Origin: Bactericera cockerelli | Taxonomy: Eukaryota; Arthropoda; Insecta; Hemiptera; Triozidae | Assembly (NCBI GenBank): GCA_024516035.1 | Contig: CM044956.1 | Span: forward strand, 31,036,217-31,100,216 | Direction of reading: 5' to 3' | Length of the DNA: 64,000 bases | Shown: positions 19,101-54,378 of the stretch, piece after piece | Position numbering within the stretch: the first letter of the stretch is position 1 | Layout: the number at the start of each line of letters is the position of its first letter | Program-made: the position numbers and the translations under genes | The notes under the pieces: generated by a model | What the model saw: only the letters and a program-made list of their open reading frames with translations | Told to the model about the DNA's origin: nothing | The model's database searches: none

Positions 19101-20683
19101 AAAAATTGTATTGCACTTTTGAATCAACCAATCAGAGAGCTCGTAATATTAACAACATTTCACCAGTGTGAAACTAGCACTTAAATTTAAAACTCAATTT
19201 ACTCAATTAGCACTATGCACTGGATAAATCAGTTAATTTCCCCATATGATCTCTAGTGAAGTATCTTCAGTGAACACTTCAATTAGCGTTTAACTGTATG
19301 TTTACTACCCCAATAGATTTCTATTTTATAAGCATATCCGCCTTATACAGATGGTCAGGTCTACAAGAGTTCATCAAAGGTCTACAAGTGTACATTGATG
19401 AGATGCTGGGAGTTCGACTTCTGTACCGGTTTGAAAAACTGCAATACAAAACGATCAAGGAAAAATATCCCGATACACCACTGCACACTCTCTACTGCCC
19501 TATTCTGGTCCTGAGACTAATTTGCAACTTGGAGAAAGTCTTCAGTCCCTCCATGGCTCTCACACCCACGGGAATGAAATTGATTGATGCTCACCTCAAA
19601 GATTTCATCAGGTAAGAAGCTACAATCTTATGGGTTCTGTGCCACCGCTGTTTATGTTATGTTTTGAGGTTTAACGTCTCTTTCACTTACTAAGGGCTCT
19701 TTCAAAGGTTGGGTGGAAGCAGGTTTACCCAACCCTTCCACCACACCGAAAATCTGTGAGTACCTCCATTCACTTGAAACTTACCAACCAGCTACCCACA
19801 TGAACCTCACCCAGCCTGGGTCGGTCCGAAAATAACCACCATCACGAGGTTTCGAATTCGAATGGTCATCTATCAGAGTCTTAACCTCGCTGGATAATGC
19901 TTAACTACAGTGAGGAGAACTGGTGGTAACGAACGTTCTTTCACCACTCTTTATGATGTATGTATCTATTTATATTTTATTGTATTAAGTGATGTTTTTC
20001 AACTTTATAGTTATATACACCACTCTTTCTTTATGATGTGAATTAATGATAGAATAATGAAGAAAATTATTACTAAAAGCCTTATTTACTGTAGCTTTTT
20101 TTTAGTTAAGTCGAGTGTGCTTGCACTTTTTCAGACAAAATTTAAAATCTAAATCCTAATATTCATGGTTACGATTGTATGAACTTTATTATCTCATGAA
20201 TATTAGTATTTAATGATCAATATGAATATTAGTATTCAATAATAAATTAACTGGTGTGACAACACACGACTTTCCTTATCACTCGAAAATAAGTTTCGCC
20301 ACTAGTGACTCAACGGTAACAGTTAGCTAAAAATTAATGTCAAATTCGTAAAATTCATTTTGACAACTACACTAAATTAAAACTTAAATTTCCAAATGTT
20401 TTGAATCTGCTGAACTTGTCATAACTTGTCTAATTACAAGTGCGGCTGCACACTGGACGTTTCAAAAAAGGAAATTCCCGCTCCCCACCCTGTATTAGCA
20501 ACTAAATAGTGTAAGAAATAAGAAAATACTGTGCTGTATTGTTTAGCTTCATTTTCTATAGACTCATATCTCCACTTTCCTATCTTTCATTACAGATATC
20601 TGGTGGTTAACTATGACAAATATTTTAGTCGCAACTTTTATGACGCCGCTACCCCCGAGTATCTGCGCATGACTGCAAAGTAG
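13182..20683 (+). CDS. MRG15: MRG15-like (MORF4L1-type) chromodomain/MRG protein, copy 1
   Basis: MRG15 family proteins are nuclear subunits of NuA4/Tip60 acetyltransferase and Sin3/HDAC complexes; the chromodomain binds methylated H3K36. Exons: 13182-13248, 14984-15124, 15830-15952, 16424-16626, 18096-18301, 19351-19611, 20596-20683. All introns are GT-AG and the frame closes to 362 residues, close to the usual family length. The chromodomain (about 24-75) has [15 protein letters not shown] and [16 protein letters not shown], keeping the aromatic-cage Tyr and Trp residues. A Lys/Ser/Glu-rich linker (about 115-178) carries a basic KKKKSS-type patch. The MRG domain (about 180-358) includes [30 protein letters not shown] and [10 protein letters not shown] at the end. 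The usual 'WLVDDWD' segment is replaced by a diverged sequence, so this copy is less canonical there than the minus-strand paralogue. Introns host four SINEs of three families plus one two-nested array. Confidence 0.92.
13442..13725 (+). repeat. Three-copy minisatellite, unit about 91-95 bp, in MRG15-like intron 1
   Basis: Units start ggcccctgtggttataatt at about 13442, 13537 and 13628, and contain gtcttgagaccatgggtctg and agagcagataaccaataaat. The second unit lacks a few bases. Open frames across it arise from the repetition and are not treated as coding. Confidence 0.8.
13898..14085 (+). repeat. 5S-SINE copy, diverged
   Basis: The head is recognisable as caatggcactttgaatgcac and the body as gctgggtgaggttaatgtgg, aatggagggtagcactcc and atgcagttaaaaacaaag. 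It lies in intron 1 of the MRG15-like gene. Confidence 0.65.
16755..16945 (+). repeat. SINE-D copy (tRNA-derived)
   Basis: The head reads gacctcagtagcttgatcga (box A) followed by ggtggttcaagtcccaagtt (box B), then 'gcaagtttgagtagttgtga'. The same order is seen in inverse at 22725-22878 and 50500-50638. It lies in intron 4 of the MRG15-like gene. Confidence 0.7.
17770..17972 (+). repeat. SINE-B copy, full length
   Basis: Starts gtcccggtagctcagtggta, includes cgtgggttcgaaacccagcc and ctaatcgggcagtataaata, and ends in an ATT microsatellite. It serves well as the reference copy for this family. It lies in intron 4 of the MRG15-like gene. Confidence 0.9.
18853..19057 (-). repeat. SINE-B copy
   Basis: Inverse orientation, same head and body as the 17770 copy with a few substitutions and a small deletion in the body. 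It is in intron 5 of the MRG15-like gene, less than 1 kb from the 17770-17972 copy in the opposite direction, so the two could pair in the pre-mRNA around exon 5. Confidence 0.85.
19655..19932 (-). repeat. 5S-SINE copy
   Basis: Body phrases (aacctcacccagcctgggt, ttaacctcgctggataatgc) match the family in inverse orientation. The head is partly degraded. It begins 44 bp after the exon 6 donor of the MRG15-like gene. Confidence 0.75.
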
Positions 20684-31259: not shown

Positions 31260-34200
31260 CTAAGAGCCTTCAACAGTTATGGTGTCCCACTGAATCTCAT
31301 CATGTCCATATGGTGCGGATGTTTTAAGGTGTTTGTTGATTACATCTCTGAAGTCTGTTGGTCTGAGTTGTTTGGTTTTTAGGGGTATTTTGTTGAATGT
31401 TTTGATGCCACGTATTATGATTGATTCAGAGTATGTAGTGTGTTTTGGCAAGATGAGGTTTGTTGAGTTTCGGGTGTTGTGTTGATGAATGTCTTGAAAT
31501 GTTGGAAGTGTGTCGGCGATTTTGTGTATTGTGCAGCACAGCTCGAGGTTGTATAATGCAAAGTATGTGAGAATATTGTGTGAAATAAAGTGTGGTTTGC
31601 ATGGTTCATCTCTTGCGAGTCCTAATGCTGTGCGCAATGCTTTCTTTTGAGCAATGAAGATTGCATTGTCAGTTGTAATTGTGGAGCCACCCCAGAACTG
31701 AATACCATATCTGAGGATGCTTTGAAGATGAGAGTGGAAGACTGTGAGAGCCATCTTGACACCACAGTTTTTTTTTGCTGTTTTTATCAGGTAAGTTGCA
31801 GATGATAGTCTGGATTGTATGTATGAAGTTTGTAATGACCAGTTTAGGTTACAATGGATGAAAATGCCTAAGAATTTGGTACTATCAGTTTGTTTGATTT
31901 CATTGTTGTTGCCTAGTGATAGAGGGTGGAATGTTGAATTATTTCTAGGGGATTTGAAGTACATGAAAACAGTTTTATTGACGTTCATTGATAGGTTGTT
32001 TTTCTTGAACCAGTGAGAGAGATTTTGCATTATTGTTTCAGAATCAGATCTTAAAGTGTGTATGTTATCTCGTGATATGAGTATTGAGGCGTCATCGGCG
32101 TAGAGTGTGAGAAGGAGGTCAGGTGAGATGGGAAAAGAGTCTTTGATGTCGTTTATGTATATTAGAAACAGTAGGGGCCCTAGGATAGATCCCTGTGGGA
32201 CCCCATAACAAATTTCTTTGTTTGATGAAAATGAGCTTCTAAGAATGCCTTCTTTGTCAACTGTTGTTATTGCCACTTTTTGTGTGCGCCCTGTTAGATA
32301 GGACTCGAACCATTTTAGAGTCAAGTTTCGGACACCATATTTTTCTAGTTTCTGGATTAAAATATTATGGCAGACACAGTCAAATGCTTTTGATAGGTCG
32401 CAGAAAATGCCTAGAATGTTTTTCCCGCTGTATAGGTCAGAGTATAGGCGGCTCAAGAAGGAGGTGATTGCGTCTGCTGTGGAAGTGTTTTTTAGAAACC
32501 CAAATTGTTCTTTTATTAATATATTATTAGTTTCTAGATGTTCTATTAGTCGCCTTTCCATTAGTTTCTCGAATATTTTTGAGAAAGACTTGAGTAGTGA
32601 GATGGGTCTATAGTTTTCGAGTGAGGTTTTGTGTCCTCGTTTGAATAAGGGTCGAATAATGGTGGTTTTGAAGTCTGCAGGAAAAAATCCTGTATTGAGG
32701 GATGTGTTGAATATTTTAGAGAGAGGTTCAGCTAGATACTGTGCGTTTTCTTCGATGACTGACAAGGGTACTTCGTCCTCGCCTTTTGCTTTTTTATTTT
32801 TGAGGAGTTTCATAATTCCTATTATTTCACCGGGGTTAGATGGGTCAGGGATGAAATTATTGATGGGTGAGATGTGTGTTGTCAATTCTGTATGGGTGTT
32901 GTTAGTGTTTGATTGTATTTGATTTGTATTTGTCTCGTTTTGTTTAGTGATATTACTGTATGATTGGTTGTTGTTGGTTGTGAAGTTGTTATTCTGGATG
33001 TATGAGTGATTTATACAGTTAGTGTTTGTTGTAGGTTGAGAGGAGCTGTTTGTTTCTATGCGAGATGCAATTGTTGTGTAGAAATCACAGAATTTTTCTG
33101 CGATTTCGTTTGCGTCATTGATAAGGTAATCATCTATTTTTAATTGTAGGGGTCTGTTTATTTTTTGTGATGGTTGAATGTATTTTTTTAGGACTATCCA
33201 TGTCTTCTTTGATTTTTGTTCTTGTAAGGATTTGATTTCTTTTAGTTCGTGTCCTCTTCTGGTTTCTCTTATGATTTTGTTGAGTTCTTTTTTGTAATAT
33301 TTGTAAAAAATCATTAAATTTGTGTTGTTAGAATTCATGCATTCTTTGTATAATTTATGTTTCATCGTGCATGCTTCACGTAGCTGTGGAGTAAACCATT
33401 TTTTCTTGTTGTGATTAATTTTAGATATTTTGGTGGGGAAAGCTTTATTGAAATGTTCTTGGAATGTGTTGCAAAAGTTGTGTGTCATGAGGTTAACTCC
33501 AGAGTCTTCATGTAGATTCGTCCAATTTTCTTTGGATAGGTCTTGTTGAAGGTTATTTAATCCTTTCTTTTCAAATTTCCTAGATTGTATCTTTTCTACT
33601 TTTTCAATTTTCCTTTGTAGTGAAATCGAGATGATTTGGGAGTATTCATGGTCGGACAGACCACTAAATATATTTTTTGATTCATAGAAAGATGGTTCAA
33701 TATTGGTTAATATGTTATCAATTAGGGTAGCGCTTGTCGAAGTTACGCGGGTGGGAGTGGTGATTGTGGTGGTTACGTTGTGACATAATAATAGGTTTTT
33801 TAGATTGGTTACATTGTTGTTATTTTGTAGGAGGTCAATATTTAAGTCACCTACAATGACAACCTGATACTTTAATGTTATTTCTTCAAGTATGGATTCC
33901 AGAGTTTCAAAAAATTGTGTTATACTACTTTGGGGATTGTTTGACCTATAGATGCATATAATTAATAGTTTTAGATTATTTTCAATCGCAGCGGTGAATT
34001 CTAGGGAAAGTTCTATGGGTTTAGTTTTTAATACGAAAGGCTCAAAGTTTAATGTTCTGTCAATGAATATTGATACTCCTCCGCATGTCTTTTGTTGTCT
34101 TATGTAGTGATTGCAAGCATAATAATTTGGTATGTTAGTGCAGATGAGTTCTTCTTTTTTGAGCCAGGTTTCGGAGAAACATAAAACCTTGGGCTTGTCT

Positions 34201-34505
34201 TTAAGAGTTTCTAGAAATGTTTGGATAGTATCAATCTTGTTGCAAATTCTTTGAATATTCTGATGTAAGATTATTAATGTTAGAGGATCTTTGGTGCTGA
34301 CAGTTTTGATAGTTTGTTCAGTTGGTTTTGTGAGGAGGTGTATGAGATTAACAGTTCTAGTGCCATGTACAGCATTTTTAAGTGACTTTGCTTTTCGTGG
34401 TTGTAAGATTATTGGGATAGTGCTTGGGATTATTGGGATTGGGATAGATAGTAGACCTAAATTCAAGCGAACTCTACATTCTAATTGAACTTGAAGAGAT
34501 CTCAA
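31260..34505 (-). CDS. LINE ORF2: endonuclease and reverse transcriptase
   Basis: An uninterrupted 1081-codon frame. The N-terminal third is an apurinic-like endonuclease: LHQNIQRICNKID, CFSETWLKKEE, VGDLNIDLL and GLSDHEY mark the conserved catalytic stretches. The central part is a reverse transcriptase with FKTTIIRPLFKRG, ENYRPISLLKSFSKIFEK, CDLSKAFDCV, YGVPQGSILGPLLF and the catalytic LYADDASI box. The C-terminal third has no RNase H motif that I can recognise. The layout fits the Jockey/CR1 side of non-LTR elements, but the clade is not certain. With no stop or frameshift in 3.2 kb, this looks like a recent insertion. Whether the first Met is the original start is unknown. Confidence 0.92.
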   Translation of the reverse strand: MRSLQVQLECRVRLNLGLLSIPIPIIPSTIPIILQPRKAKSLKNAVHGTRTVNLIHLLTKPTEQTIKTVSTKDPLTLIILHQNIQRICNKIDTIQTFLETLKDKPKVLCFSETWLKKEELICTNIPNYYACNHYIRQQKTCGGVSIFIDRTLNFEPFVLKTKPIELSLEFTAAIENNLKLLIICIYRSNNPQSSITQFFETLESILEEITLKYQVVIVGDLNIDLLQNNNNVTNLKNLLLCHNVTTTITTPTRVTSTSATLIDNILTNIEPSFYESKNIFSGLSDHEYSQIISISLQRKIEKVEKIQSRKFEKKGLNNLQQDLSKENWTNLHEDSGVNLMTHNFCNTFQEHFNKAFPTKISKINHNKKKWFTPQLREACTMKHKLYKECMNSNNTNLMIFYKYYKKELNKIIRETRRGHELKEIKSLQEQKSKKTWIVLKKYIQPSQKINRPLQLKIDDYLINDANEIAEKFCDFYTTIASRIETNSSSQPTTNTNCINHSYIQNNNFTTNNNQSYSNITKQNETNTNQIQSNTNNTHTELTTHISPINNFIPDPSNPGEIIGIMKLLKNKKAKGEDEVPLSVIEENAQYLAEPLSKIFNTSLNTGFFPADFKTTIIRPLFKRGHKTSLENYRPISLLKSFSKIFEKLMERRLIEHLETNNILIKEQFGFLKNTSTADAITSFLSRLYSDLYSGKNILGIFCDLSKAFDCVCHNILIQKLEKYGVRNLTLKWFESYLTGRTQKVAITTVDKEGILRSSFSSNKEICYGVPQGSILGPLLFLIYINDIKDSFPISPDLLLTLYADDASILISRDNIHTLRSDSETIMQNLSHWFKKNNLSMNVNKTVFMYFKSPRNNSTFHPLSLGNNNEIKQTDSTKFLGIFIHCNLNWSLQTSYIQSRLSSATYLIKTAKKNCGVKMALTVFHSHLQSILRYGIQFWGGSTITTDNAIFIAQKKALRTALGLARDEPCKPHFISHNILTYFALYNLELCCTIHKIADTLPTFQDIHQHNTRNSTNLILPKHTTYSESIIIRGIKTFNKIPLKTKQLRPTDFRDVINKHLKTSAPYGHDEIQWDTITVEGS

Positions 34506-35067
34506 CTTTCTGCATCGAATAAATGGTAGACCGAAAAATTCAAGAGTAGGTACTCAAAATTGTTAATATTGTAGTAAGAACGCCTTGAAATTCAAGAGAA
34601 AGTAGGTACTCTTAATAATTATAAATGTTTTCAACATTGAATAATTATCAAGTGCTTTTGTAAAGCGCCCTTAACCATTTCAACACTAAAATAAAAGTCT
34701 GAATGGTAAATGTGTCCCTGTACCTTTCATGTAAAAGTAGCTAACACTTTAGGGTATTATCGCTGTTATCAGTAAGCCTCTATGTATATTTCTGAAGAGT
34801 TAGGAGATTGTCTAGCGAAAAATGCACTCGCTTACTCTACCTATAGACTTATCAAGTTGAGTTAGCACGCCTACTTATTTTCTCCGTACCTGGCATTAGT
34901 GATAACAATATGTTCTGTTCGTATTTTAGACATCAATTTTATGTCTCAAAAAGAATCCGTTATTGAAAACAAATTTTGTGGGCTCCCACATTTTCACTTC
35001 GTACTCAAAACCAAGTGAAACTTTTCTCACTGTCCAAGGCGTACCAGAAGCTCAAGATGGGCGGGGC
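34506..35067. other. Intergenic, right flank of the LINE
   Basis: Carries the continuation of the 'caaaattcaagagtaggtac' repeat field to about 34660, then ordinary AT-rich DNA up to the receptor stop codon. Confidence 0.5.
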
Positions 35068-39770: not shown

Positions 39771-41219
39771 AGTCAGGGCTATTTTTCACATGCACAGATA
39801 AAGAAGTGTGTAGGTAATATACTGTCTGCATAATGTGTACACTCGTACAGTTAGAGTAAGAGGACCAACTATAACGTCGTCTTCGATGAAATCAAAGTTT
39901 ACATCAGTAATTGTGTAACCATGTAAAGGCATACTGCGGAAACAAGAAGTTCTTGATTCTCAGGCAGACGTACCTACATCGATTGTAATCAATGCATTGG
40001 ATTTTATTCAATATTCAACAAAACAATTCACATCGAACTGCATCACTAAAAACTGTTTTCATTTGAATTTTTAAAAGCAGTTTAGTTTTCCAGTGTTTTT
40101 AGTTTTACATGCTACTCCTGTTCCTTGAACTAGGCACCTAAACTATAATAATCACATACGTACGTAATAAAGCTACCTAAAGATCAAAAGTTTAATGGAC
40201 GGGCGAAACAATTTTAGACAAAGCTCAAAAATAGGTTGAAAATGATAAATTATTGAAATAATAATATTGGTGATATTAGTAATAATAACAACACGGATTT
40301 ACAAAACTAACAAGAAGGTAATATGAAGGTGTAACCATATTTAAGGGAATTCATAATTGTTATTAGCCTGTCGCATTGTTCTGTTATAATTATACAAATG
40401 AAACATATAAATAGTTTTTGCCGCATGCATCGAGAATTTAAATAAAATTACGCCATAGATTAAAATGGGGATACCATGCGACACCTATAAATGGCACGAA
40501 TGAAGATAGGTATAATACAATATTGCAGTACGGCAGATTAGCTAAACTATCGTGCATTTTATGATAAAAGCACCACAAATTTGGCACAGAGGTAGACCCA
40601 TATGATATAAGCAAATTTAGATATAGAGCCATCAACTGCCTTTCCTTTCAATTTCTAACATAACCGCTATTTGGGGGCTCTTTAAACAATCCAAGATAGG
40701 GAAAATTTATAAGTAAATAAAAAGCTTTAAATTAAGAAATAAGTAAAAAAAAATATTCTAATATACTTTTGGTAAAAGCTAGTCTAAGCGAGATTTTACC
40801 GCTTTTTGGCGTCCGCTTTCAAAAAAATTATATCATTTAAATGCCACTCCTAGAGGTTCCACCAATGCGTTAATTAGTCGCTTGAGAGTTTCCAGCGAAT
40901 GGAGATTAACACTAGTCTTCAATTATCTCCGACGTTAGAGACGTTGGAGCAAAGAAAATCCACAATCGAGGTGCTCGCAATAAGTAGATTGGATCAAATT
41001 TAGTAGCCTTGCTATACATATGTATACTTCTCATAGCGCCACCATAGGATTTAGGATGGCTCATGTCGGACTATATCCTGTAGTAATCAGCATTCAAGAC
41101 TGGTTTTTCATTTAACAGTAAAGATGTTTCGTTAAATAATTGGCATAAAACTTTAGAGGTCTACACGTTTTGCCTCTACATAAATAGTCATTCAAACTCT
41201 TCAGTGTGAGCGCACAGAC
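39771..41219. other. Intergenic DNA upstream of methyltransferase copy 2
   Basis: No gene or clear transposon seen. The promoter and 5' UTR of the methyltransferase must lie near the right end. Confidence 0.45.
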
Positions 41220-44200
41220 ATGAGCAAAGTTAGACTGTTGGATGGAAGTTTCACGAGTCAAGTGGCAAAACACGCAGTGAAGGACATTGATGGGCATGCT
41301 TTGTGGAGTTCTCTGTACTTGATTACTGAACCGGAGGCCTGTATTGAAACACATCGAGACTTCATCAGGGGTAAGTTTTTACGGTTTGATAAAATAACTG
41401 GCAGGAAACCTGCACTTGGTCGGAAGAAATATCTCGGAACTAAGAATTCATCACCAGTGTACGCTGGAATACCGCAGTCTTTCCCTCATCAGCCACCTTC
41501 TACGAAAATTTCCAGAAACTCTTTTCTTCGTGCACATCTACGTCATCAGATAATCCTTTTTAATCTCGATATAGAATTTCAGCCTCCTATGTTGTGGCTA
41601 TATCAGTGAGTGAGCGGATTTAGTTTCAAACATTGATAGCTATGTATTAATAAATTAATATCTCTTTCATTTGAGACGGGAATTTTTAAAGTTTCACCCT
41701 TCTGAGGAAATTTACAATATTTGGCTGGGAATAGTCAGCATCACAAATGGTTGAGTCTGGGGATCACCTACTAAGTTTTTACTTCGCTGGACGTAGCTTA
41801 ACTTGAGAGAATTAACGAGAGCTGGAATAAAAACTCGGAAATTTGGTATTTTACACATGTACATCGCTTTATTACAGCCGGAGCAGACATCATTGAGGCA
41901 AACAGCTATCAAGTGAACACAATAAACTTGGCTAAATTAGGTTATTCTAATGAAGAAGCTCATGAAATCCTACAGAAATCAATCCACCTGATGAACATCG
42001 CGAAGGATAGGGAGAACAAGAGTAAGTGATGTGACAGATTATTTATCTAAAATCCTATTGTCAAATTGTATTAAATTTTATACAAGTTAGACCACTTCGG
42101 TCTTATAATATGTATTGGCATCAATCGTACTTGAAAAGACGAAAATATCAACTTTAAAAAAAAAAAAAAAAAACAGTCTTAAACTGACATGTTTAATTTA
42201 CAGGAAATATTTGTTTTATGAATTTACATTTTTATTATTTATTTATTTTTCACTATCAATTTTTTTTTTCGTCGTGAAATATATGAGCATGACTTGAAGT
42301 CGTAAAAGAGAGTCGTGTGATGTCCACACATGATCTGTTTATTGAGGAGGTAAATAAACAAGTTAGGTGGGCAGTGAAGACGCGCGGTAGAGGCGATCTC
42401 TCTCATTATCATACAAACGGCACTAGCCAAGTCACCAAGTGAGGCGAATTTTACCGTCATAAAGTTATTCATGAAGAAGACAAGATTGTTACCATCAATG
42501 TGATGACACGATATCGAATACACAACATTGAAATAACAACAAGATAAGACAGTTTTAATAGAAGGTGGTACAATACTGTTAAATGAAAAAGAATAGTATC
42601 ATTAGAAGGAACTTTACACAAACAGTCAAACACCTGATCTAGGATATAGTACATTGTTTATGCGTTTTCTACCCCATAGGAGAATAATGATAATAATAAT
42701 AATAGATCTCATGAACAAGTCTAAACACTGAATTGTGCTTATTGCTACATTGAGAAATTCTGGGCTAGCTCGAGATAGCAAAGGTGGAAAATATTTGGCT
42801 ATAAGAAGATTTCTCTCACAGGACACACAGAAACAGCAGGATCAGTGGGACCCTATGCAGCAGCTCTGAGAGACGGGTCTGAGTACAACGGACATTACGT
42901 GAACTCCATGACTGAGGCTGACCTGATGGACTTTCACCGGCCCAAGATTGAGTCCCTGGTCAATGCGGGAGTGGACTACATAGCCCTCGAAACCATCCCT
43001 GCCGAGAAAGAGGCTCTCGCCCTGGTGAAGTTGATGCGGGAATTCCCCGGACAGAAAGCTTGGCTCTCGTTTTCATGCAAGGTAAGCTTCGGTTCATTAC
43101 TCTCTAGTAACCTATACATATATTCCAGGGAGAACGAATGAAAACTAACAGCTAGGTAAGTTTACTGTGGGTAGCTGGATTACGAGTTTTCAGCCAATGG
43201 AGGGAGCGTAAACCCCTCGGTTCGAATAACCTAGCGCTCAATGTTAGAGATGTTAAAAAAAACTCCTTATTGGAATTTCAAGTCGGTACGTGCAAATGGT
43301 TATTTTAAAAACTGACCCAGATTTCAGAGGATGATTTCATGCGTATTCAGTTAGGTTCCAATGATTGTTTTGTTATTCGATCGGAGAATTGTATAGTTTG
43401 ATTTGGACTTTCATGTTGGTTCCTCCAAAATTAAAGTACCATTTAAATTTTAATGAATTATTATCAATTGTGTCACGGGCATTAAAAAATTAACGATGGA
43501 GAAGAAGCTTAATTGGTGAAGCAATATTTAAGAGACCATTTACTCTGACTATGCAATTGGGCCTATCTATACTTATAAAAGAGAGTTTCACTCACTGACT
43601 GACTGACTCACTCACTCACTGATTCATCACTGTTTCTCCGAACTGGTAAGTCCTAGGAAGCTGAAATTTGGTAAGTAGCTTTGTCTTATAGTCTAGATGT
43701 GCAATAAGACGGGATTTTTGAAATTCCCACTACAACACCTGCCATTGGCGAAAAAGGATTTTTTGCTTTACGACCATGCCTCGGCCCGCTAGTGGATAAT
43801 AAATGCTCAAAAAAAGTACAATGTATATGTTCATAGGATGACTGCCACACAAGTCACGGAGAACTGTTCTCCTCTGCTGTGTCCTCGTGCCTCCTCGCTA
43901 ACCCAGACCAGATTCAGGCAGTAGGAGTGAACTGTGTCAGTCCCAAACATGTATCCGGCCTCATCCGAAGTGTGAAACAGATGCACCCTGCCGTGCAAAC
44001 CATAGTGTACCCGAACAAGGGTAGTGTTTGGGACAGTGCTACCATGACGTGAGTACTGCTAACTAATTGACCTGTTAAATTACACCTGACAAGAGATACA
44101 CAATTGGGTAGAAAAATGGCGCTTTCGTCTCTGTAATGCTAGGCCGCGGGTTCAATTCCTCCTCGAGGCAAATAGTTTAATATAAAAAGAACGAAATTAC

Positions 44201-46209
44201 TATGGATATGGTGAAATCAAAATATTTTACTCACACTCGGTGCGAATTTATTAAATTTCATACAATGTAGGCACATTTGATAGAAAAGTTGTAAACTTAA
44301 ATGAAATATTTATTTTAATTCATAATTACCTATTTGTAAAATGGTAACCCACACGCGCGTGTCTATTAGATTGTAGTACTACTCACTTTACTATGTACAA
44401 AATATTTACAACCTACACAGTACATAGGAAAATTGGCTACGAGCACAGAAATACGAAAGACAACACGAGCAAAACACAGCTAACACTACGACAGTATCGC
44501 GACTTAAGATAAAGTGTTAAGCATTCCATCTCAAGATGATGAGAACGTAAACAAGAGAATAATAAACAAGTGGGTGATACAGGCAGAGAGAGAGAGATGG
44601 GGAGAGAGAGAGGGGGGAGAGATGGGAAGAGGTAGGGAAGAGAGAGGAAGGGAGTGTGTGAGAGAGACACTCGCAGAGGACGAGAGGGAAGGGATATAGG
44701 GACAGTGTTTTCGAAACTAGGAGTTCAAAAGGGTTCAATCTGAATAAAATGACCTCGTAGCTTCTACAAGAGCCAACTCGCAATAATCTAACAATTTTCT
44801 ACCTTAGTGTTTGTTATTTATGTTGTTATCTATACAGGGTGTCCCACGAACAGATGCATATATTTTAAGGGTAGGTTCAGCCCACCGTGGAGTATCATAT
44901 AAGCTGAAGTTGCAGTGGGCATTTTGCTGCGTTAAAGATTTATGGCCAAATCCCCGTTTTTCCTACAGGTCAAGAGGTCACTTGGATTGATGTAAGTTTT
45001 TTTAAGAAATCATGGTCAGTAGGTAAGTTGTGACTTCATGTATGGATAGTCATTCATATTTCCCTTCGAATACTGTTAGTTGCTTCGAAAAATATTAAAA
45101 AACAACTTTTTAGTTGTTCAACTTTTTATTCAATCATTAAAGTTCAACTTTTTTCGAAAATTCGCTTTTTCCCTTTCTTGAATTGTGTACTTTTACAATA
45201 GCAATTATTCGTATCACTAGTCAAAAAATACCTTGGGAATATTACTTTCGATAAAACTAAGGTTCTTTCTTTGGTGATTAGAAATAAAGGAGGTATTTTT
45301 GTGATTAGGAATAAAAAAGGAGTTTGTACGTTGTACCTTTGAATTCGATTTCAGAGGTACAACCTCTGAAAAAAAAAAAAAAAAAAAAAAATGATGGAGT
45401 TCTCTAGAATTTTGAAACTGGGCGCTATTGTATTCTGACGTCGATTAGATGTCTGAAGCAATTTGTGCCAAGTAAAGGGAAGTTCAAATTTAGTACAGAA
45501 ATTAAAAAAAAGCTCCAGTAAAGAAAGCTGAATACAGAAATTAAATGAAAAGTATCTTATGCATGACTACCCATAATATGCAATGACTACCCAACTACCC
45601 ATACGTGAAGTCACAATTTACCAAGTGACCTATAGCTTGTGGGAAAAACAGGTATTTGGCTATAACTCTTTAAAGAAATAAAATGGCTCACTGCAACTTC
45701 ATTATATGATAGTCCACGATGGGCTGACCTTACCCTTAAAATATATGCATCTGTTCGTGGGACACACTGTATAAGTACATACTTATTTCCCATTCCTCCT
45801 TAACAGTGTAACGTATAAATAAACAATTAGATTTTCCACTAACACGTAATTTATATTTAAATAAAAATGGTAGTTTATCTTCGTCCATTGAATAAAATAC
45901 GCAGGCCAAATCATGAAATAAATTCAAAAGGTATAGAAATTAATGGAAAGTAAAAAAAAAATCAAATATTCTTGAAGCTTTATTACGACTATGCCTCATT
46001 CTAGAGAAGATTTATGCTGTGATTTCCTACTTGATAAACATTGTTTCAGATGGAATATGAGAGAAGGAGAGCAAAGTATCCTGCAGCATCTACCTCAGTG
46101 GTTGGAGGCTGGGATCAATATCATAGGAGGCTGCTGTGAGGTCGGTGCCCAAGAGATAAAACAAATGAGAACAGTCATAGATGAATTTAACATGAAGAAA
46201 AACGATTAG
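41220..46209 (+). CDS. Homocysteine S-methyltransferase, copy 2
   Basis: Same zinc-dependent methionine-forming family as the gene at 22420-27271, in the opposite orientation. Exons: 41220-41370, 41878-42021, 42822-43081, 43837-44048, 46050-46209; phases 1, 1, 0, 2; 308 residues. Exon 1 has exactly the same length (151 bp) as in copy 1, and starts MSKVRLLDGSFTSQVAKH; it also shares THRDFIRG at its end. Zinc cysteines are present: C218 in AVGVNC and C284-C285 in IGGCC. Exon 2 contains ADIIEANSYQVNTINLAKLG. GSVGPYAAALRDGSEY and AWLSFSCK match copy 1. The 'DGG' of the N-terminal strand is DGS here, a small departure. By eye the proteins are roughly half identical, so the duplication is not recent. 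The last intron (44049-46049) contains a foldback MITE. Confidence 0.93.
41722..41826 (-). repeat. 5S-SINE fragment
   Basis: The plus strand reads ggctgggaatagtcagcatc and 'cgctggacgtagcttaactt', the inverse of the family's body/head junction. It lies in intron 1. Confidence 0.55.
43148..43262 (+). repeat. 5S-SINE body fragment
   Basis: gtgggtagctggattacgag and 'ccaatggagggagcgtaaac' match the 3' half of the family. The 5S-like head is absent. It lies in intron 3. Confidence 0.55.
43560..43790. repeat. Dispersed repeat beginning with ACTG/ACTC microsatellite
   Basis: A 'ctcactgactgactgactca' microsatellite is followed by 'gctgaaatttggtaagtagc' and 'cctcggcccgctagtggata'. This wording is common in dispersed insect repeats; the class was not determined. 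Confidence 0.5.
44580..44700. repeat. GA-rich simple sequence
   Basis: About 120 bp that is almost purely purine, with GAGAGA and GGGA words. Confidence 0.8.
44832..45773. mobile_element. Foldback MITE with about 155-bp inverted arms
   Basis: Left arm tacagggtgtcccacgaaca and right arm inverse (tgttcgtgggacacactgta). Both arms continue with matching blocks (gatgcatatattttaaggg, 'gtcacttgg' at the inner end). It is about 940 bp, with a poly-A run at 45370-45391 in the loop region. TA flanks fit a Tc1/mariner-like origin. It lies in intron 4 of methyltransferase copy 2. Confidence 0.8.
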
Positions 46210-46244
46210 TCTATATTCACCAAGGATTTGAGCCATTACGATGT

Positions 46245-46412
46245 ATGTCTGTCCCGGTAGCTAAGTGGTAAAGGCTCTGTGGATTCACAGAGTGAGTGAA
46301 TCCATAGATTCCGGAGGTCATGGGTTCGAAATCCAACCGGGACATGACAAATTATCCTCCCATTTGGTATTTTTGCCACATAATGATATGTTTTGGGCTT
46401 ACTGCTCAAAAT
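46245..46412 (+). repeat. SINE-B copy right after the methyltransferase stop codon
   Basis: Head gtcccggtagctaagtggta, box B tcatgggttcgaaatccaac, body 'ttatcctcccatttggtatt'. The 3' end is truncated. It begins 36 bp after the stop codon, so it is in the 3' UTR; the next AATAAA is at 46724-46729. Confidence 0.8.
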
Positions 46413-47056
46413 CTCAAACATCCAAGAATCTACTGACACAAACTACATATATTTTCTTTTTTATCAAAATCATTCCAGTTATTTATGACGAGTACAGAGT
46501 CACACATCATGTACAGAAGAATATAATATTGCCGTGTTAAAGATAGGTAGAGGTAAAATAATTATCATGGGATAAGTAGAACAAGATGAGACAACAAGAC
46601 TGAATATAGTGGAGACGTTTTGTACACAGCCCGATGATAATGAACAAGCTGATTTATGCATCTAAACCACATTTCTAAACAAACGGGTGAACCTTTTAAT
46701 TTGTTCTTAAGTTGTGTTGGTTTAATAAATTTGCATCTCAAATTACTGTTTTTTTTCTTTTCTTCCAAATATAGGTTTAATGAAAAATTTTACCAAGCTC
46801 ATTTGGAGCACATTTGACACAAAGAAAAGCTAAAAATGGTCTGAGCGAATGACTGAAAATTATCTTGTTAACATGACTTTAGAATAAATGCCGTCAAAAT
46901 TCAGTATTTAACAACAAGCAATGCTGGTATAAATTAAACAACCAAGAGAGGTAAAAGCTCACTTCTGCCTGAATCCTACTGCTAGCTCATCCTAATAATT
47001 TCGTCTCCATGACCATTGATCCACAAAATATCTGTGAGAGACTGAATTTGTTTTGC
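46413..47056. other. Convergent 3' region of methyltransferase copy 2 and MRG copy 2
   Basis: Contains AATAAA at 46724-46729 on the plus strand, a likely polyadenylation signal for the methyltransferase. No other gene is seen. Confidence 0.5.
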
Positions 47057-47458
47057 TTATTGCATTTTCATTGGAGTTCGACTTTTTCTTCCTCTCTTAC
47101 GAGTCACAACTTTCTCTTTGTCTTCTGTCTTACATTCTTCTTCGTCCCTGTTTTCTCCTTCCTTCTCTATCTTACATTCTTCATCTCCTTCATTATCTTT
47201 TCTATCCAACTTGACATTATCCTCTTCTACTTTACATGTCACCTCATTACCTATCTTACCTGCCTCAACTTTCTCTTGACCCACCTGAGTGCCAGACCCT
47301 CCACTTTCTGTATCTCCTGTTTTGCGTGGTCTTCCTCTCTTTCTCTCGCTCTTCGCCGTCTGTCTCTCACTTCCTAAAGCTAGTCTTTGTTTCTTTGGTC
47401 TTCCTCTGCCTTGCTTGACGACAGCACTGGGATGCAAGGCAGTGCTGCATGGCGTGTG
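47057..47458 (-). CDS. AT-hook C-terminal extension, in frame behind the MRG stop codon
   Basis: Directly after the TGA at 47461-47459, the same frame stays open for 133 codons and stops (TAA) at 47059-47057. The peptide is strongly protein-like, with two textbook AT-hooks (GRGRPKKQR and KRGRPRKTG) and a weaker third (KRGRKSR). They are separated by an acidic/basic Glu-Lys-rich stretch. The only in-frame ATG codons are in the last few residues (RTPMKMQ), so it cannot be an independent AUG-initiated gene. It should be made as an extension of the MRG protein by stop readthrough (context AAC TGA CAC) or by splicing. A candidate 51-nt GT-AG intron, 47477-47427, starts inside CAGAG/GTGCGC, ends at CATCCCAG, contains the stop plus an 'aactgac' branch-like word, and preserves the frame. 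Alternatively, an ancestral longer protein acquired a stop. Confidence 0.65.
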   Translation of the reverse strand, partial: HTPCSTALHPSAVVKQGRGRPKKQRLALGSERQTAKSERKRGRPRKTGDTESGGSGTQVGQEKVEAGKIGNEVTCKVEEDNVKLDRKDNEGDEECKIEKEGENRDEEECKTEDKEKVVTRKRGRKSRTPMKMQ

Positions 47459-50400
47459 TCAGTTGGGTGTCGCGCACCTCTGAATGAGATCTGACGGAAT
47501 GTCAATGTAATGACTGCAGTGGTTCAGGGTGGTTGCTTGTTGCAGTAGATACCTGAAAAGTGTCATAATCATCATTATAATAGGGTGGGATTACATTATA
47601 GTGAACCATGTTAGCCAAGTAATGAAGAAATCTCTTGGGATTCCTATTTGTCTTGACAGATTACCTGATTGCTTGACGTCAAGCAAGTGCTGTCGTCAAG
47701 CAAAAATCTTTTCCTGCCTGTCAAAAGATAGGCAGGAAAAGATTCCTGCCTATCTTACAAACACTATCGATAATACAAATGTTTTTGGGGTTTAAAGTCC
47801 CTTTCAACTGCTAAGGTAATATCGAGACGGGGTTATAACCTCTATTTACTGAAAACTTACCAACTAGCTACCTAATTTAACCTCAACGAGCTTGGTTTGA
47901 GCCAGGAGTAGCCACCATCACAGGGGTTTGAATTGAATAGTCACCCATCCAAGTCCTATCCTCTCGATGTTGCTTCACTTTAGTGACAGAACGAGAATTG
48001 GTATATTCAACTTGCTTTCGACGCTAGCTGATGGAAATATGTAATTCGTATTCTCACCAAAGAAAATCCTGGAAAGCGTTCTGCAGAAGTTGAATGTTCC
48101 TCTCACTGAGCGCTGTGTAGGCCAGGACGGAACCTATGCGGACAAATAGGCGCAACAGGTGACTCGCGCCATAGAGAGAACTCAGCGCAGCTCCTTGGTG
48201 CCTCTGCATCAGCTGAGAGTACTGGCGACGCTCCGCCTGGTACAGCAATTGTGACCCCAGCATCACGTTGAAGTATTCCTTCAAATAAAACCAGGTGAAT
48301 GTTTCTCCTCATTTATCTTTACAAGGATTATTTTCTCAGTGATTCATTGACAATGATAACATATGTGTCTTAACCAGGGGGGGAAAAACAAGAAACTATG
48401 CTTACTTGACGACACCCTGAAACGGACACATTGTTCCAGCTTCAATGAGTCATGTTCTGGCAGGTTTAACGGCAATGCAGCCTCTGAGAACAATCTTGAG
48501 ACTATCCTAATAGTTTTATTCTCGTACCTAAGTACCACAAAATATAAATACTCCGATTTCTGGTATTAGAAATTTATCGGAAGTAAAATTAACCTAAAAA
48601 TACTAAATATTTACCAATTTAGGATTTAAAGAAAAAAGTGAAGGAAAAATTCGTACCTTTAGTCCTGCAACCATTTCAGTAGCTGCTTTGCCTCTTGCTC
48701 CGGACATTTGCTTGCTGCTTGCCTTGTGCTTCAGGTATGATTCTAAGATGTCGTCTACGCATGTTTTTGCGGGAATCTGGTGGAGCTAACAAAAAGGAAC
48801 CACAAATAATTATTTATTCATTGGTCATTACTATCAGAAAAACGGGACTAACGGAAATATCTGACTCGAAGCAAATTGGTGCAAGCTAAAAAATAAAACC
48901 AATTATACTAAGAACATTTTCGTTTTCAGTGTTTTTTTTATTAAGGTCTCACCAATGAATGTAAAAACTGTTTTACTTTTTGACAGGTGATTCTGCTGGT
49001 TAACTCCCTGTTTATAAGAGTCTCAAGTCAGGCTTAATTTGCTGGACTACAACATACTCGTATATGTTATGTATTGTGAACTTGTGTTATTCTCCTGCAA
49101 GGTTTTGTAATCAACATAAATCCTAAATGCTAGTATTACCAGCAGTATGTCCTGGTAGCTCAGTGGTAAAGGCGGCACTCTGTGAATCCAGAGATTCCAG
49201 AGGTCGTGGGTTCGAAACCCAACCGGGACATGACAAGTTATCCTGCCATTGGGATTTTTACCGCATAATAATACGTCTTGGGCTTACTGTTGGAATAATG
49301 GGACTTGATAGTCCTAATCGGGCAGTATAAATAAGGCGATATTATTATTATTACTCGCGCTTACCTTGTTTTTATTATTGATAGTGTCCCAGTCATCCAC
49401 CAACCAGGTCCTCAGAGAATCTGGAATTTTGATCTTGATCTCCACCTTGTTTAGATATTCTTCCATCTGCAAAAATGAAACCAATTAATGAATAACTAAA
49501 TCCTAGGATTGGTATTATTTTATACTAATTATTTTTGCAAGAAAGGAAGCATGAGCGAATAAATTGATACTGTTTTTCGGTTCGTGTCACAGCGCGGTCT
49601 ATTCTTTCAAAATTAAAAGTGCTGTAGTATCACATGCATTTGTAAAATAAAGAAATAACTTTATTTAAGTGTATACTATAATTTCATATTTGGTTTTATA
49701 GTTTAAGTAGGTACATTATATAAGTTAACCAGGTCCGCGTTATAAAAATGGGTTTGTAATGCGTTAATGAAAAAAAATATCATTTGTGAAGAATTTCAAA
49801 ACTTTTTTGAAATTTGAAAGAGTAGGATATTCAACTTACAGTTTCAACACTGTTGTCCAGGCGGGCTTTCTTCTTCCTGGGGACATCACTACCGGAGTCT
49901 TGAGACGACGCCACAGATGGGGCCCGGGGTACTCCTCCCATGGCTTTGATCTTACCTGTGTCAAATTTTCCAAGATAAATATTTAAAATGTACAGATACA
50001 TATTACATTTCTCCTCATTAATTTGAGTTTGTGACCACGTAATAATAAGACCCTGAGGGTTAGGTGGTAGAAAATGCTTTGAGCATTAACCTCGCCTAGT
50101 GGTTACCTTCCAATAAAGAGTATTATTATAATTATGTAGCAATAATTTATGCCCCTATAATGAATAAATTTGTATTTTTCCTTTCATTTTGTATTTTTCT
50201 TCTCGTTAAAAATAACAATAATGCATAGATAAAATAGATTTGTTTCTTTGTGTTATCACGACATATTATATTACTTTGCCCATAATTTCGCCACTTCTAG
50301 TTCCGCCACCGCAAGCAGCTAGTCATTTTTCATCACGAGGTATGAGTGGCCCCCGTAATATCCAAAAGACAGATCAGGAAAATTCGTACATTTTTCGCGA

Positions 50401-53400
50401 ATCCTAGAAAATTGTATTCGAACCCAGGTCACCGCTTGTGCAAGCCTAGTGCGCTATACCACTCGGCCACGGTGACTGCTTGATAAAAATATAAGTTATC
50501 ATATTTTGTGTTGATTACTTTCGTGATATCGCAACTACTCAAACTCGCTTTAATAAATCTACGCTGAAACTAGGACTTGAACCGCCAACCTCCAAGTTAT
50601 AAGTCCAACGTCTTATTGATCAAGCTACTGAGGTCGGTTTAAAAAATATACATAAGAACATACATAGATGGATCAAGAGCACTAATTCCTGAATCTACAA
50701 GACATTTTTTTTTTTTTTTTTTTTTGAAGTTTTTTTATCATTCATTTAAATATCTCTGACTCCAAGAGGATTTTTTTTCTTTTTTAATTTATGAAAAGAA
50801 AAAGAAAAGATCGCCACACAATATTTTTACAGCAATTAAATAACAGCCACTAGAAAAAACTTGTAGTGTGTGTATCTTACACTTGCAACGTGTGCTTCAC
50901 CATCCTTTGGTATGCCTCCCTCTCATAGGTGAGAGCCACAATTCTGCCTATCTAACACATTTGTATTTTTTTACAAATATTTGTCAGCACTGGGTTTGAA
51001 AACCACATGGAAGTATAAGAAGGATAATCAGTGATCTTTTTCAAAAATTAAATTCTGTACTTTTAAGTTCATTTTAATGGCGTTCACATTACATCTTTGA
51101 ACTGAAATGAAAAAAAATATGTGCTGAAAAAATAATTAGTAATATTAGTATGAAGTATGAACTTACATATTTTATCTAGTGTAGGTGTCACGCATCTTCC
51201 TTCGCTATCCTTTCCATCTGTTTTCTTTTTCTTTTTAGCACTCCTGAAACAAAAGATATACATGCTAACATTAAGATCCCAGAAGAAACGCTTAATTCAA
51301 CCCGATCATAATGTATATCCTTAGATCCACACGCTAGCTTGTTTACATTACTACTCTGAAGCTTTATTTCGACAATGCTAAGTAAAGTTAATGTCGGTAA
51401 TTACAAAAATCAATACCTAATGTAATGTGTGTTGAGTGCTATAGTATTGTTATTGGATATTGGAAATGACTTACTGATCAGACTCTTGCTGAGATTTCTT
51501 TAAGTCTTTCTGTCTCTGGACATTGCTGTCATTGAACTTCAGAACTCTGCACTCTGGTACCCATTCATCCCATCTGAAATCAATAACAAGAACAGCAAAA
51601 GTTTCCTTTAATTAAATTAAAAAAAAATCATCAATATTATTTCCAATAAATTTCTAACAATAAATTTTTTTTGCTCCTATTTCAATCATATTTCTTCAAA
51701 TAATTTATTTAGTTTAAAGTCCCTTTCAACTACATGGTTTACCTTCCATTTCCTGGAAATTCACAAACCCAGCTACTCAAATTTCAATTTGAATGATCAC
51801 CCATCCAAGTCCGAATCTTGCTGGGCATTGCTTAATTTCAGTGACTAATATATTAAACGTGCCATTGATGCTGGCTATATGTCATAGAACATTAAGACGA
51901 GTATACATGCAAAAGTTTTGAAATTTAATTAGATGTTGCTGGAATTTTTGAACACACTTGAGACATGTTGTAGATGTTCAACTTTGAACAAGCATAGACA
52001 AAGAGCTTGCACATGACCTCTAGCTCAAATTTATTACATTATGAATGAATTGTAAATCTTTACAGAAAAAAATCCTGGAACAATTTTTTATCTTTTTAAG
52101 TGCTTAAGATAGATACTTGGAATTTTGTATATAATTTAACACAAGTTTATCAATTTTTATCATAATGAAAACTGTTATAGGATGTCCTTAAATAGTGAAA
52201 CTTACCAACATTCGATTTTTAAATGGAACATGTTATTCTTATTTAATATTCAATTTTTTTTTTTAATTCAACACACAATCATAGTTCCTATTGCACTTTT
52301 GGATCATCCTGTAGAAATTTGTACAATACCCAAAAATGGATAAACTTGTGTTAGAAGTAAATGTATACATATTTTTTATAGTATCAATCTTTAGCCATTA
52401 AAAGGATAAAAATCTGTTCTGAGTCTTCTTGACCAGTCAGTGCAATAATTCATTGAAGACTTACGTTTTATTCCACCCATTATAATGGATAAAGTATTCA
52501 CTCAAACCTTGATCATTTGTTCTTACATTATGACATTTAGCTTCATAAATCAAGGGTCCATGAAAACAAAGAACTCTTTCACCTGGAAAAAGTAAAATAT
52601 TATGAAAACATTAGAAAGTAATGAAAATTACTGATCTTATTTTGATCTTTCAATCAGATTTAAATGATTTCATTGTGAAAATGAGGTAGAAGACACTGCA
52701 GAAACAAAATAGATTGTTTTCATACTGTTGTTTGTTTATTATATCTACTGAATTTTCTCTAATTTGAGAACTACAATCATCATTGTACTCGTATTTTATT
52801 ATCTCTCAGAAATGTATCAAACAGTAGGTTTGTATCAAATGTATCAAACAGTTCTCACTTGAACCTCTGAAGCTAAGTCAGCTACACCAAAACTTGACAA
52901 ACTCTCTGAATAAGGTCAACCCTGAATATATTCTTTTTTTTTCAACTAATCAGTGACATTCTTAACACTCTGTATCCAAAAAATACAAATATATAGAGCA
53001 AAAAGCAAATTTTTATACAGGGTCTGCCATTGATTATGAACCATTTTGAAATGCCTATTTTTCAAAGCTAAAGTTTTGTTACAAGTTTTTCTTTGATGGG
53101 ATGCTAGAAAATAGAATACCATTTACTGTAATACAGACCACAGAGATGCTCGCCTTAATGTAGAGTGCATGAATTCAGAGCTCAGAAGTTCCCCCAAATT
53201 ACTCATAGCAATTACCAACATGTTTACCAACAGCAAACACAATGTAAAGCTTGAGAGAATGTCAGAAATCATTCTGCATCAGGGCCACCATCTTCATGGT
53301 GATTGATCTGATCTTCAAAACAAATTGTGAGTATTACAATAAATGGCATTTTGTTTTCTAGCATTCCATTAAAGAAAAATTCATTGTGAAACTTCAATTC

Positions 53401-53978
53401 AGAAAATAGAGATAGGCATTTCAAAATGGTTCATAATCAATGGTGGACACTATAACATGAAATTTACAATATTAACCAATCTTTTGTTGTTTTTCATACT
53501 CAAATGTTAAGTTATCTTCAGCTAAATTAACAGCCATTATTTGTGTAGTGGGTGTTATATCCTAACAAAACATACCTGCTTTAAATCTATGGTTTGAAGG
53601 AGTTACATTTGGTCTTTCAATTTGATTAGATGTTTCAATGGGAGGTTTATCTTCAGTTAATGTCTTGTCCTCTACCAATTCCATGGTTTCATCAGTTTTT
53701 TCTGAAGCATTATCGGCAGGAGATTCAGTTGATGCTTCACATTCTAAACCATTTTCATTTTTCTGTACATTTTTTGTGATAATACATTCATCCACTTTGC
53801 AATCATCACTTTTCTGTATACTTTTAGTGACATTAATATCATCACATTTACTATTTTCACTTTTCTGTATATTTTTTATAACAATATTTTCATCACATTT
53901 ATCATCTTCATTTTTCTGTGAATTCTTAGTAAGACTATTTTTGAGTTCTGATTTGCTAGGTCTTTTGGAGGGTGACAT
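47459..53978 (-). CDS. MRG15: MRG15-like chromodomain/MRG protein, copy 2
   Basis: Exons in transcript order: 53978-53576, 52582-52465, 51573-51475, 51243-51167, 49955-49840, 49466-49365, 48785-48657, 48278-48058, 47552-47459; the frame closes at 452 residues. A 134-residue N-terminal extension, absent from typical MRG15, holds four 17-residue repeats. The chromodomain (about 136-190) has [15 protein letters not shown] and [18 protein letters not shown], close to the canonical family and with cage aromatics kept. A basic linker follows with [10 protein letters not shown] and a serine patch before PRKKKARL. The MRG domain (about 272-448) includes [27 protein letters not shown] and [11 protein letters not shown]; it is more canonical than copy 1 at its start. 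The end IQRCATPN lacks the usual PPEYHRK-type tail. It presumably acts in NuA4/Sin3-type complexes; division of labour with copy 1 is unknown. Intron positions only partly match copy 1: the first intron agrees in place and phase, but the chromodomain here is split. Confidence 0.92.
47671..47757. repeat. Cluster of palindromes in the last intron of MRG copy 2
   Basis: An 18-bp perfect palindrome, ttgcttgacgtcaagcaa, at 47669-47686. A 13-bp stem, tcttttcctgcct/aggcaggaaaaga, lies at about 47707-47745. A further copy of the word (ttcctgcctatctt) follows. Confidence 0.85.
47782..48033 (-). repeat. 5S-SINE copy
   Basis: Inverse copy with body (aaagtccctttcaactgcta on the plus strand) and head (inverse of 'caacttgctttcgacgctag'). 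It ends 25 bp from the exon 8 donor of MRG copy 2. Confidence 0.75.
49143..49354 (+). repeat. SINE-B copy, full length, next to an exon
   Basis: gtcctggtagctcagtggta to the ATT tail. The tail ends about 10 bp from the donor of exon 6 of MRG copy 2 (49365), on the intron side. Confidence 0.88.
50030..50135 (+). repeat. SINE tail shared with 62085-62270
   Basis: Both places share tgaccac.taataataagac, ctgagggttaggtggtagaa and 'ggttaccttccaat'. Here the tRNA-like head is missing. Confidence 0.65.
50325..50478 (-). repeat. SINE-E copy
   Basis: Inverse of the 24822 copy: tRNA-like head from 'gccacggtgactgcttg' and box B 'ttcgaacccaggtcaccg', and a body word tcacgaggtatgagtgg. Confidence 0.7.
50500..50638 (-). 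repeat. SINE-D copy
   Basis: Inverse: 'gatcaagctactgaggtcgg' head and 'tcgcaactactcaaactcgc' body match the copies at 16755 and 22725. It lies in intron 4 of MRG copy 2. Confidence 0.75.
51711..51883 (-). repeat. 5S-SINE copy, partly deleted
   Basis: Body fragment (aagtccctttcaactacatg) and head remnant (inverse of 'cgtgccattgatgctggct'), with part of the middle missing. It lies in intron 2 of MRG copy 2. Confidence 0.65.
53016..53453. mobile_element. Foldback MITE in intron 1 of MRG copy 2
   Basis: Left arm tacagggtctgccattgatt and right arm inverse of tatagtgtccaccattgatt. Both continue with atgaaccattttgaaatgcc. The arms exceed 100 bp with imperfect matching. TA at both outer edges suggests a TA target site. 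It is noncoding, about 440 bp. Confidence 0.8.
53724..53927 (-). repeat. 51-bp coding minisatellite (17-residue repeats) in MRG copy 2 exon 1
   Basis: Residues 18-85 contain four units of 17 residues starting at K18, K35, K52 and K69: [54 protein letters not shown]. The unit keeps a K-x-x-Q-K core and Asp/Cys positions. Confidence 0.85.
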
Positions 53979-54149: not shown

Positions 54150-54378
54150 AAGTTCCACTTGGCTTTCAACTAAATGATGGGGGTTTTAGTGTTTTAGCCT
54201 CCATTTGCTAGAAACTCTCAAACCAGAGCTACTCAAATTAACCACACCACGACTGAGTGGGACCAGGAATAGCCAGCATCACAAGGGTTTATATTTGAAT
54301 GGTCACCCATTCAAATTCTAACCTCACTGGACATTGCTCAACTTCAGTGACATAACAAGAACTGGTGTATTCAATTGT
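54150..54378 (-). repeat. 5S-SINE copy
   Basis: Body (ctcacaccactgag-like region with 'gggaccaggaatagccagca') and the C-box-equivalent 'gaatggtcacccattcaaat' in inverse. It lies upstream of MRG copy 2. Confidence 0.7.

What the first reader, a model, noticed from the sequence alone, without database searches (positions are those of the whole stretch)
47057..47552. AT-hook domain in frame behind the stop codon of an MRG15 paralogue
Seen: the last MRG exon stops at TGA 47461-47459 and the same frame stays open for 133 more codons. Those codons contain GRGRPKKQR and KRGRPRKTG, clear AT-hooks, with no ATG until the last residues. The peptide therefore needs the MRG start codon. Two routes are visible: stop readthrough (TGA followed by C), or removal of a 51-nt GT-AG segment (47477-47427) that contains the stop and keeps the frame. 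Known: AT-hooks bind the minor groove of AT-rich DNA, and MRG15 reads H3K36 methylation. Inference: the gene may make two isoforms, one able to bind DNA directly, which I do not know from described MRG15 proteins.
Basis: partly seen in the sequence, partly recalled or inferred. Interest (0 to 1): 0.92.

Follow-up and report, generated by a model that had tools for sequence, protein, structure and literature searches.

The report
Possible AT-hook tail behind psyllid MRG15
In a psyllid insect, the gene for the chromatin protein MRG15 is followed, in the same reading frame behind its normal stop codon, by 133 codons that spell DNA-binding AT-hooks; the stretch looks more like protein-coding sequence than chance would give, but whether the insect ever translates it is not shown.

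Summary
The gene is a 9-exon psyllid MRG15 (92% identical to Diaphorina citri over the MRG part). Its TGA (47461-47459) is followed in frame by 133 open codons with GRGRPKK, KRGRPRK and a degenerate KRGRKSR. Chance of the open frame is about 1e-4 to 1e-3; codon periodicity (P 0.004) is absent from the following 3' sequence.

The stop is genuine: D. citri and Cacopsylla proteins end at the same place, and 199 of 208 relatives have a C-terminus of that length. So the tail, if made, is an addition. Three in-frame routes exist: readthrough of TGA-C; a 51-nt intron (fair donor, poor acceptor, far shorter than the gene's other introns); or exon 8 joined directly to the same acceptor. No expression data and no relative's DNA could be reached; the tail alone found no protein homologue. 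I favour occasional readthrough, without discriminating proof. AT-hook-like words in MRG15 are not unprecedented: oyster MRG15 has two KKRGRP in its linker. New variant of a known kind, moderate interest.

The parts
53576..53978 (-). exon 1, start codon and divergent N-terminus
   Evidence: GT-AG junctions, joined in one frame; start resembles D. citri P0121
52465..52582 (-). exon 2, chromo-barrel part
   Evidence: tblastn to MRG15 proteins, joined in frame
51475..51573 (-). exon 3, rest of chromo barrel ([12 protein letters not shown])
51167..51243 (-). exon 4, basic linker
49840..49955 (-). exon 5, linker
49365..49466 (-). exon 6, MRG domain
48657..48785 (-). exon 7, MRG domain
48058..48278 (-). 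exon 8, MRG domain core; its donor is in phase with acceptor 47427
47459..47552 (-). exon 9 up to the normal stop TGA 47461-47459 (protein end [10 protein letters not shown])
   Evidence: end homologous to D. citri and Cacopsylla protein ends
47427..47477 (-). 51-nt GT-AG segment holding the stop; possible intron
   Evidence: donor GAG|GTGCGC scores 5.5 (own donors 2.5-8.3), acceptor CATCCCAG|T scores -2.5 (own acceptors -0.8 to 12.3)
47057..47458 (-). 133 open codons behind the stop, AT-hook tail, ending TAA
47390..47410 (-). AT-hook 1, GRGRPKK
47321..47341 (-). AT-hook 2, KRGRPRK
47411..47428 (-). exonic arm of a perfect 18-nt inverted repeat; begins at the AG of acceptor 47427
47686..47703 (-). 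intron-8 arm of the same inverted repeat

Best explanation
This is the psyllid MRG15 gene with a genuine, conserved stop codon, followed by an extra C-terminal reading frame that is or was recently translated as an AT-hook tail. The most likely way to make it is occasional ribosomal readthrough of the TGA (followed by C), giving a minor MRG15 isoform with two AT-hooks that could add direct DNA binding to the protein that reads H3K36 methylation. Shown: the gene, the conserved stop, the open frame, the hooks and the coding-like statistics. Inferred: translation, the route and the function.
For: Open frame and two hooks rarer than chance. Period-3 composition P 0.004 in the tail against P 0.98 in the next 357 nt. 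Stop at the homologous place in D. citri and Cacopsylla, so the tail is an addition, not an assembly slip. No ATG in the frame before its last residues, so it needs the MRG start. Readthrough is reported as abundant in most insects tested, and extensions may begin as leakage and later be kept (PMC5100048, passages only). That TGA-C is a leaky context is recalled. The intron route has a poor acceptor and a length of 51 nt against 231-1211 for the gene's eight other introns.
Against: No expression data. No tail homologue found (45 candidates of 73-233 residues, 0 significant), and none of the four psyllid proteins read (P0001, P0021, P0121, P0122) shows the tail; P0122 stops before the last exon, P0021 is a fragment and P0001 a scrambled model. 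A codon score trained on this gene favours the frame over the two others of its strand but gives the antisense frames higher values (7.3, 0.5, -12.0; antisense 9.6, 8.0, 15.8). Periodicity is not significant in the first half of the tail alone (P 0.12), the half with the two GRP hooks, and intron 8 comes near significance itself (P 0.055). RNA folding behind the stop is no better than shuffles (z 0.26 and 0.02). The tail is purine-rich, which favours open frames. Tribolium and Apis did not show abundant readthrough in PMC5100048, and I saw no hemipteran result there.
Confidence: 0.38

Rival explanations
1. The tail is joined by splicing: either the 51-nt segment is an optional intron, or exon 8 splices directly to acceptor 47427, skipping 126 nt and cutting off the end of the MRG domain. 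Both keep the frame.
For: Donor GAG|GTGCGC is within the range of this gene's own donors and in the top 8.5% of 378 GTs; phases fit. The segment holds CTGAC, a good branch-site word (recalled), placed over the stop itself. An 18-nt perfect inverted repeat pairs intron 8 with the exon at that acceptor and would loop out the normal one; the fold of 47380-47800 is better than 100 of 100 shuffles (z -5.7). The protein letters of a D. citri gene model (P0001) suggest that it leaves exon 9 at the homologous donor.
Against: Acceptor is weak (score -2.5; 44% of 485 AGs do as well). 51 nt is less than a quarter of the gene's shortest other intron (231). The fold includes hairpins lying wholly within intron 8, and I did not separate their share from that of the stem. 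P0001 is a scrambled model (exon 9 before exon 3), so its junction is poor evidence. Going from exon 8 to 47427 removes the last MRG segment.
Confidence: 0.27
2. Not translated: a purine-rich 3' UTR whose open frame and hook-like words are chance or the relic of repeat expansion.
For: Composition (42% A, 31% G on this strand) makes open frames and R, K, G, E codons likely; three 27-nt imperfect repeats at spacings 42 and 84, multiples of 3; the opposite strand has a 134-codon open frame too and higher codon scores; 4th-order Markov simulation reaches two hooks in 0.7%; no homologue found.
Against: The exact frame is open in only about 0.01-0.1% of simulations; the strand's other two frames carry 8 and 14 stops; strict hook motifs occur nowhere else in the window's six frames.
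Confidence: 0.22
3. The tail is the last exon of a different transcript that starts elsewhere and uses acceptor 47427.
For: A phase-2 acceptor fits any phase-2 donor, and exons 2 and 3 end in phase 2 as well, so a chromo-barrel plus AT-hook product is possible on paper.
Against: Weak acceptor. No further exon was noticed nearby, but none was systematically searched for.
Confidence: 0.08
4. A sequencing error or a private mutation made the TGA, and the normal protein is one long MRG15 with AT-hooks.
For: The frame is the same on both sides.
Against: Other psyllid proteins end in the same place with a similar ending (ATPN, ATLN, STPN), and with this stop the C-terminus is 58 residues behind the LRLFV block (counted by hand), as in 199 of 208 relatives with 50-59.
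Confidence: 0.05

Closest known systems
MRG15 / MORF4L1 (Drosophila MRG15, yeast Eaf3)
   Same: Chromo barrel, basic linker, MRG domain, usual C-terminal length when read to the TGA
   Different: MRG C-terminus of a kind shared with other psyllids, long divergent N-terminus, and the possible AT-hook tail
LEDGF/p75 (PSIP1), a PWWP chromatin reader with AT-hook-like motifs
   Same: Would combine a chromatin reader with AT-hooks in one protein (LEDGF domain map seen in passages of PMC10854676)
   Different: Different reader fold; its motifs are a regular part of the protein, not behind a stop codon
Ash1, an MRG15 partner with AT-hooks
   Same: AT-hooks in the same complex; hooks and BAH domain hold Ash1 on mitotic chromatin (PMC8426247, abstract and passages; complex with Mrg15 from the abstract of PMC10148413)
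   Different: Here the hooks would lie on MRG15 itself
Oyster MRG15 with KKRGRP linker words (P0181, P0211)
   Same: AT-hook-like words inside an MRG15 protein
   Different: In the linker, regular part of the protein, not reported by Pfam's AT_hook model
Insect stop-codon readthrough genes
   Same: Coding-like frame behind a stop codon
   Different: The published candidates seen (PMC5100048, passages) rest on alignments of many species; here one genome only

Membership tests
MRG15 | MRG domain | tested here: met
   PF05712 E 4.1e-49, 167 bits; chain 8bpa_D, Mortality factor 4-like protein 1, E 6.7e-86 for the whole query
MRG15 | N-terminal chromo barrel | tested here: met
   aligned to chains 2f5k (Mortality factor 4-like protein 1, E 1.3e-28) and 2lrq (EAF3 homolog, E 4.9e-24)
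MRG15 | C-terminus ends shortly behind the MRG domain | tested here: met
   58 residues behind LRLFV with the TGA; 199 of 208 relatives 50-59; would not hold for the extended form
AT-hook | GRP core flanked by basic residues | tested here: met
   GRGRPKK and KRGRPRK
AT-hook | Pfam AT_hook gathering score for the protein | tested here: not met
   17.0 bits against 17.4, 2 stretches
AT-hook | binds AT-rich DNA | not testable with these tools
   needs the protein
stop-codon readthrough gene | coding signature behind the stop conserved among species | not tested
   no psyllid DNA other than the window could be reached; the genome search did not complete 17 times
stop-codon readthrough gene | single-genome coding signature behind the stop | tested here: inconclusive
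   open frame and whole-tail periodicity yes; first half not significant and codon score no better than antisense
stop-codon readthrough gene | RNA structure behind the stop | tested here: inconclusive
   a hairpin of at least 7 bp about 12 nt behind TGA is in the predicted fold, but z 0.26
alternative intron 47477-47427 | splice sites as strong as the gene's own | tested here: inconclusive
   donor yes, acceptor no (matrices from only 8 introns)

The most novel reading that the evidence does not exclude
Psyllids make two MRG15 proteins from one gene, a normal one and a minor one with an AT-hook tail added behind a leaky or spliceable stop, so that an H3K36-methyl reader gains its own DNA anchor under translational or splicing control; a stem between intron 8 and the alternative acceptor could be the switch.
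Probability: 0.3. Interest if true: 0.65.

Novelty: new variant of a known kind. Interest (0 to 1): 0.42.

Why it matters
If real, it would be a case where a general chromatin reader gains DNA binding as an optional C-terminal extension, testable in a group of insects with sequenced genomes. It would also give a clear functional content (AT-hooks) to a stop-codon extension; the function of most is described as unknown (PMC5100048, passages). I found it in no relative, so if real it may be a recent invention of one lineage.

Tried and rejected
Tail alone against the protein database: 45 candidates, none at E 0.001 or better; that search considers only proteins of about 73-233 residues. MRG-plus-tail query, 290 residues: 260 of 2585 candidates significant, 120 listed; in the two psyllid hits read only the MRG part matches. 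Bacterial and archaeal genome contigs scanned for stray psyllid DNA: 41 pattern matches, none a relative. Stem-loop behind the stop as a readthrough stimulator (idea from passages of PMC13170385): not better than shuffles. Repeat origin of the tail: among the 40 best similarities between bases 1-30000 and 34001-64000 none covers it. Tandem repeats in 46900-48400: none. AT-hook tail behind the second MRG gene: no strict hook motif there in any frame. Literature, listings only: 'MRG15'+'AT-hook' 16 papers, 15 listed, none titled on an AT-hook MRG15; 'MRG15'+'Diaphorina citri' 1 paper, on condensin II; 'MRG domain'+'AT-hook'+'H3K36' 1 paper, on Ash1; 'MRG15'+'splice variant'+'insect'+'chromodomain' none; psyllid intron lengths 9 papers, 8 listed, none opened. 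Listings of readthrough (29 papers, 12 listed) and LEDGF papers (40 papers, 8 listed) served to choose what to open.

Full report
What the gene is. The minus-strand gene has nine exons, the first 53978-53576 and the last beginning at 47552, with GT-AG junctions and one continuous frame when joined by script. It encodes a chromo barrel and an MRG domain (PF05712, 4.1e-49; Mortality factor 4-like protein 1 of solved structure 8bpa, 6.7e-86). The nearest proteins are psyllid: D. citri P0121 (92% over 58% of the 290-residue query), Cyamophila P0122 (88% over 49%) and the Cacopsylla fragment P0021. The window is therefore from a psyllid other than D. citri, or it is a diverged copy; I could not name the species.

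The stop. Read to the TGA the protein ends [11 protein letters not shown]. citri P0121 ends DLIQRSSSATLN and the Cacopsylla fragment DLIQKPTTISTTPSTSTPN; whether the Cacopsylla record is complete at its end is not stated. Of the 212 distinct proteins listed (only the best 120 of each search are listed), 208 had the LRLFV block, and 199 of these have 50-59 residues behind it; the longest has 99. The window's normal form has 58 (counted by hand). So the TGA is the ordinary end of MRG15, and the tail is an addition.

The tail. 133 codons are open behind the stop, with two clear hooks and a third degenerate one. The other two frames of the strand hold 8 and 14 stops. In 50,000 dinucleotide shuffles the frame stayed open in 0.014%, two GRP[RK] in one frame occurred in 0.002%, and an open frame together with two hooks never. 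Markov models trained on the tail gave 0.035-0.105% for the open frame and up to 0.7% for two hooks, at order 4. Of 8098 stop codons in the window 17 are followed by as long an open frame, and a strict hook motif occurs only twice in its six frames, both times here. The three codon positions differ in composition (G 20.0, P 0.004; from the acceptor on P 0.0015), as in the gene's own coding sequence (0 of 4000 shuffles) and unlike the following 357 nt (P 0.98). Results the other way: the first half alone, which holds the two hooks, is not significant (P 0.12; second half P 0.026), intron 8 comes near (P 0.055), and a codon score trained on the gene is higher in all three antisense frames. The tail found no homologue in the database.

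Routes. Readthrough: TGA then C; folding behind the stop is ordinary. Readthrough is described as abundant in most insects tested, though not in Tribolium and Apis (PMC5100048, passages); I saw no hemipteran result there. Splicing: with matrices made from the gene's own eight introns, donor 47477 scores 5.5 (own donors 2.5-8.3, each left out of its matrix) and acceptor 47427 scores -2.5 (own ones -0.8 to 12.3). The intron would be 51 nt, the others are 231-1211. The same acceptor is in phase with the donors of exons 2, 3 and 8, so a direct exon 8 junction is possible too. A perfect 18-nt inverted repeat joins intron 8 (47703-47686) to the exon at 47428-47411, starting at the acceptor's AG; the window holds 7 inverted repeats of 16 nt or more with loops under 600 nt, this one among them, so it is not unique. 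The precursor fold of 47380-47800 is better than 100 of 100 shuffles (z -5.7); it contains both this stem and hairpins within the intron, and their shares were not separated. The stem could mask or favour the acceptor; this is speculation.

Judgement. I give about 0.7 to the tail being or having recently been translated as an extension of MRG15 or as part of a related transcript, 0.38 to readthrough as the route.

Novelty. No listed MRG15 relative has a hook word behind its MRG block (0 of 212, motif search; in five of the seven with a hook word the place was checked by Pfam, and in one of these, P0055, it lies at the very start of the MRG match). Seven of 212 have such a word ahead of or at the start of the MRG domain; three have two of them, including the oysters Saccostrea and Ostrea, not reported by Pfam at E 0.5. 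So hooks in MRG15 are rare but not without parallel; hooks behind the stop are new as far as the searches show (listings only).

Surroundings. The window contains a second, more diverged MRG gene on the plus strand (14983 to about 20683) and two homocysteine S-methyltransferase genes (one above the Pfam cut-off, the other found by similarity to it), arranged as mirror images around about 34 kb: an old inverted duplication of the pair.

Noticed in passing
14983-20683 (+) with 27271-22429 (-), and 41184-46209 (+) with 53978-47057 (-): An MRG gene and a homocysteine S-methyltransferase gene occur twice in mirror order, apparently an old inverted duplication; the plus-strand MRG copy is more diverged from other insects' MRG15.
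   Followed up: partly
12512-12633 (-), with similar stretches at 47786-48030, 54191-54374, 26595-26836, 9061-9251, 19762-19913: 5S rRNA match inside a dispersed repeat, so probably a 5S-derived SINE family; one copy lies in intron 8 of the gene.
   Followed up: partly
49144-49356, 46243-46406, 17765-17981, 8621-8829, 26380-26582, 18851-19056: Dispersed repeat with tRNA family matches at 46251, 8743 and 17773, probably a tRNA-derived SINE.
   Followed up: partly
31263-34553 (-): 1097-codon open frame with a reverse transcriptase domain and an endonuclease-like match just under its cut-off, a LINE-like element between the two duplicated halves.
   Followed up: partly
47725-47756 and 47700-47749: Strong hairpins in intron 8 directly upstream of the 18-nt inverted repeat arm.
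   Followed up: partly
53027-53058 and 53412-53443: 32-nt perfect inverted repeat inside intron 1 of the gene.
   Followed up: no
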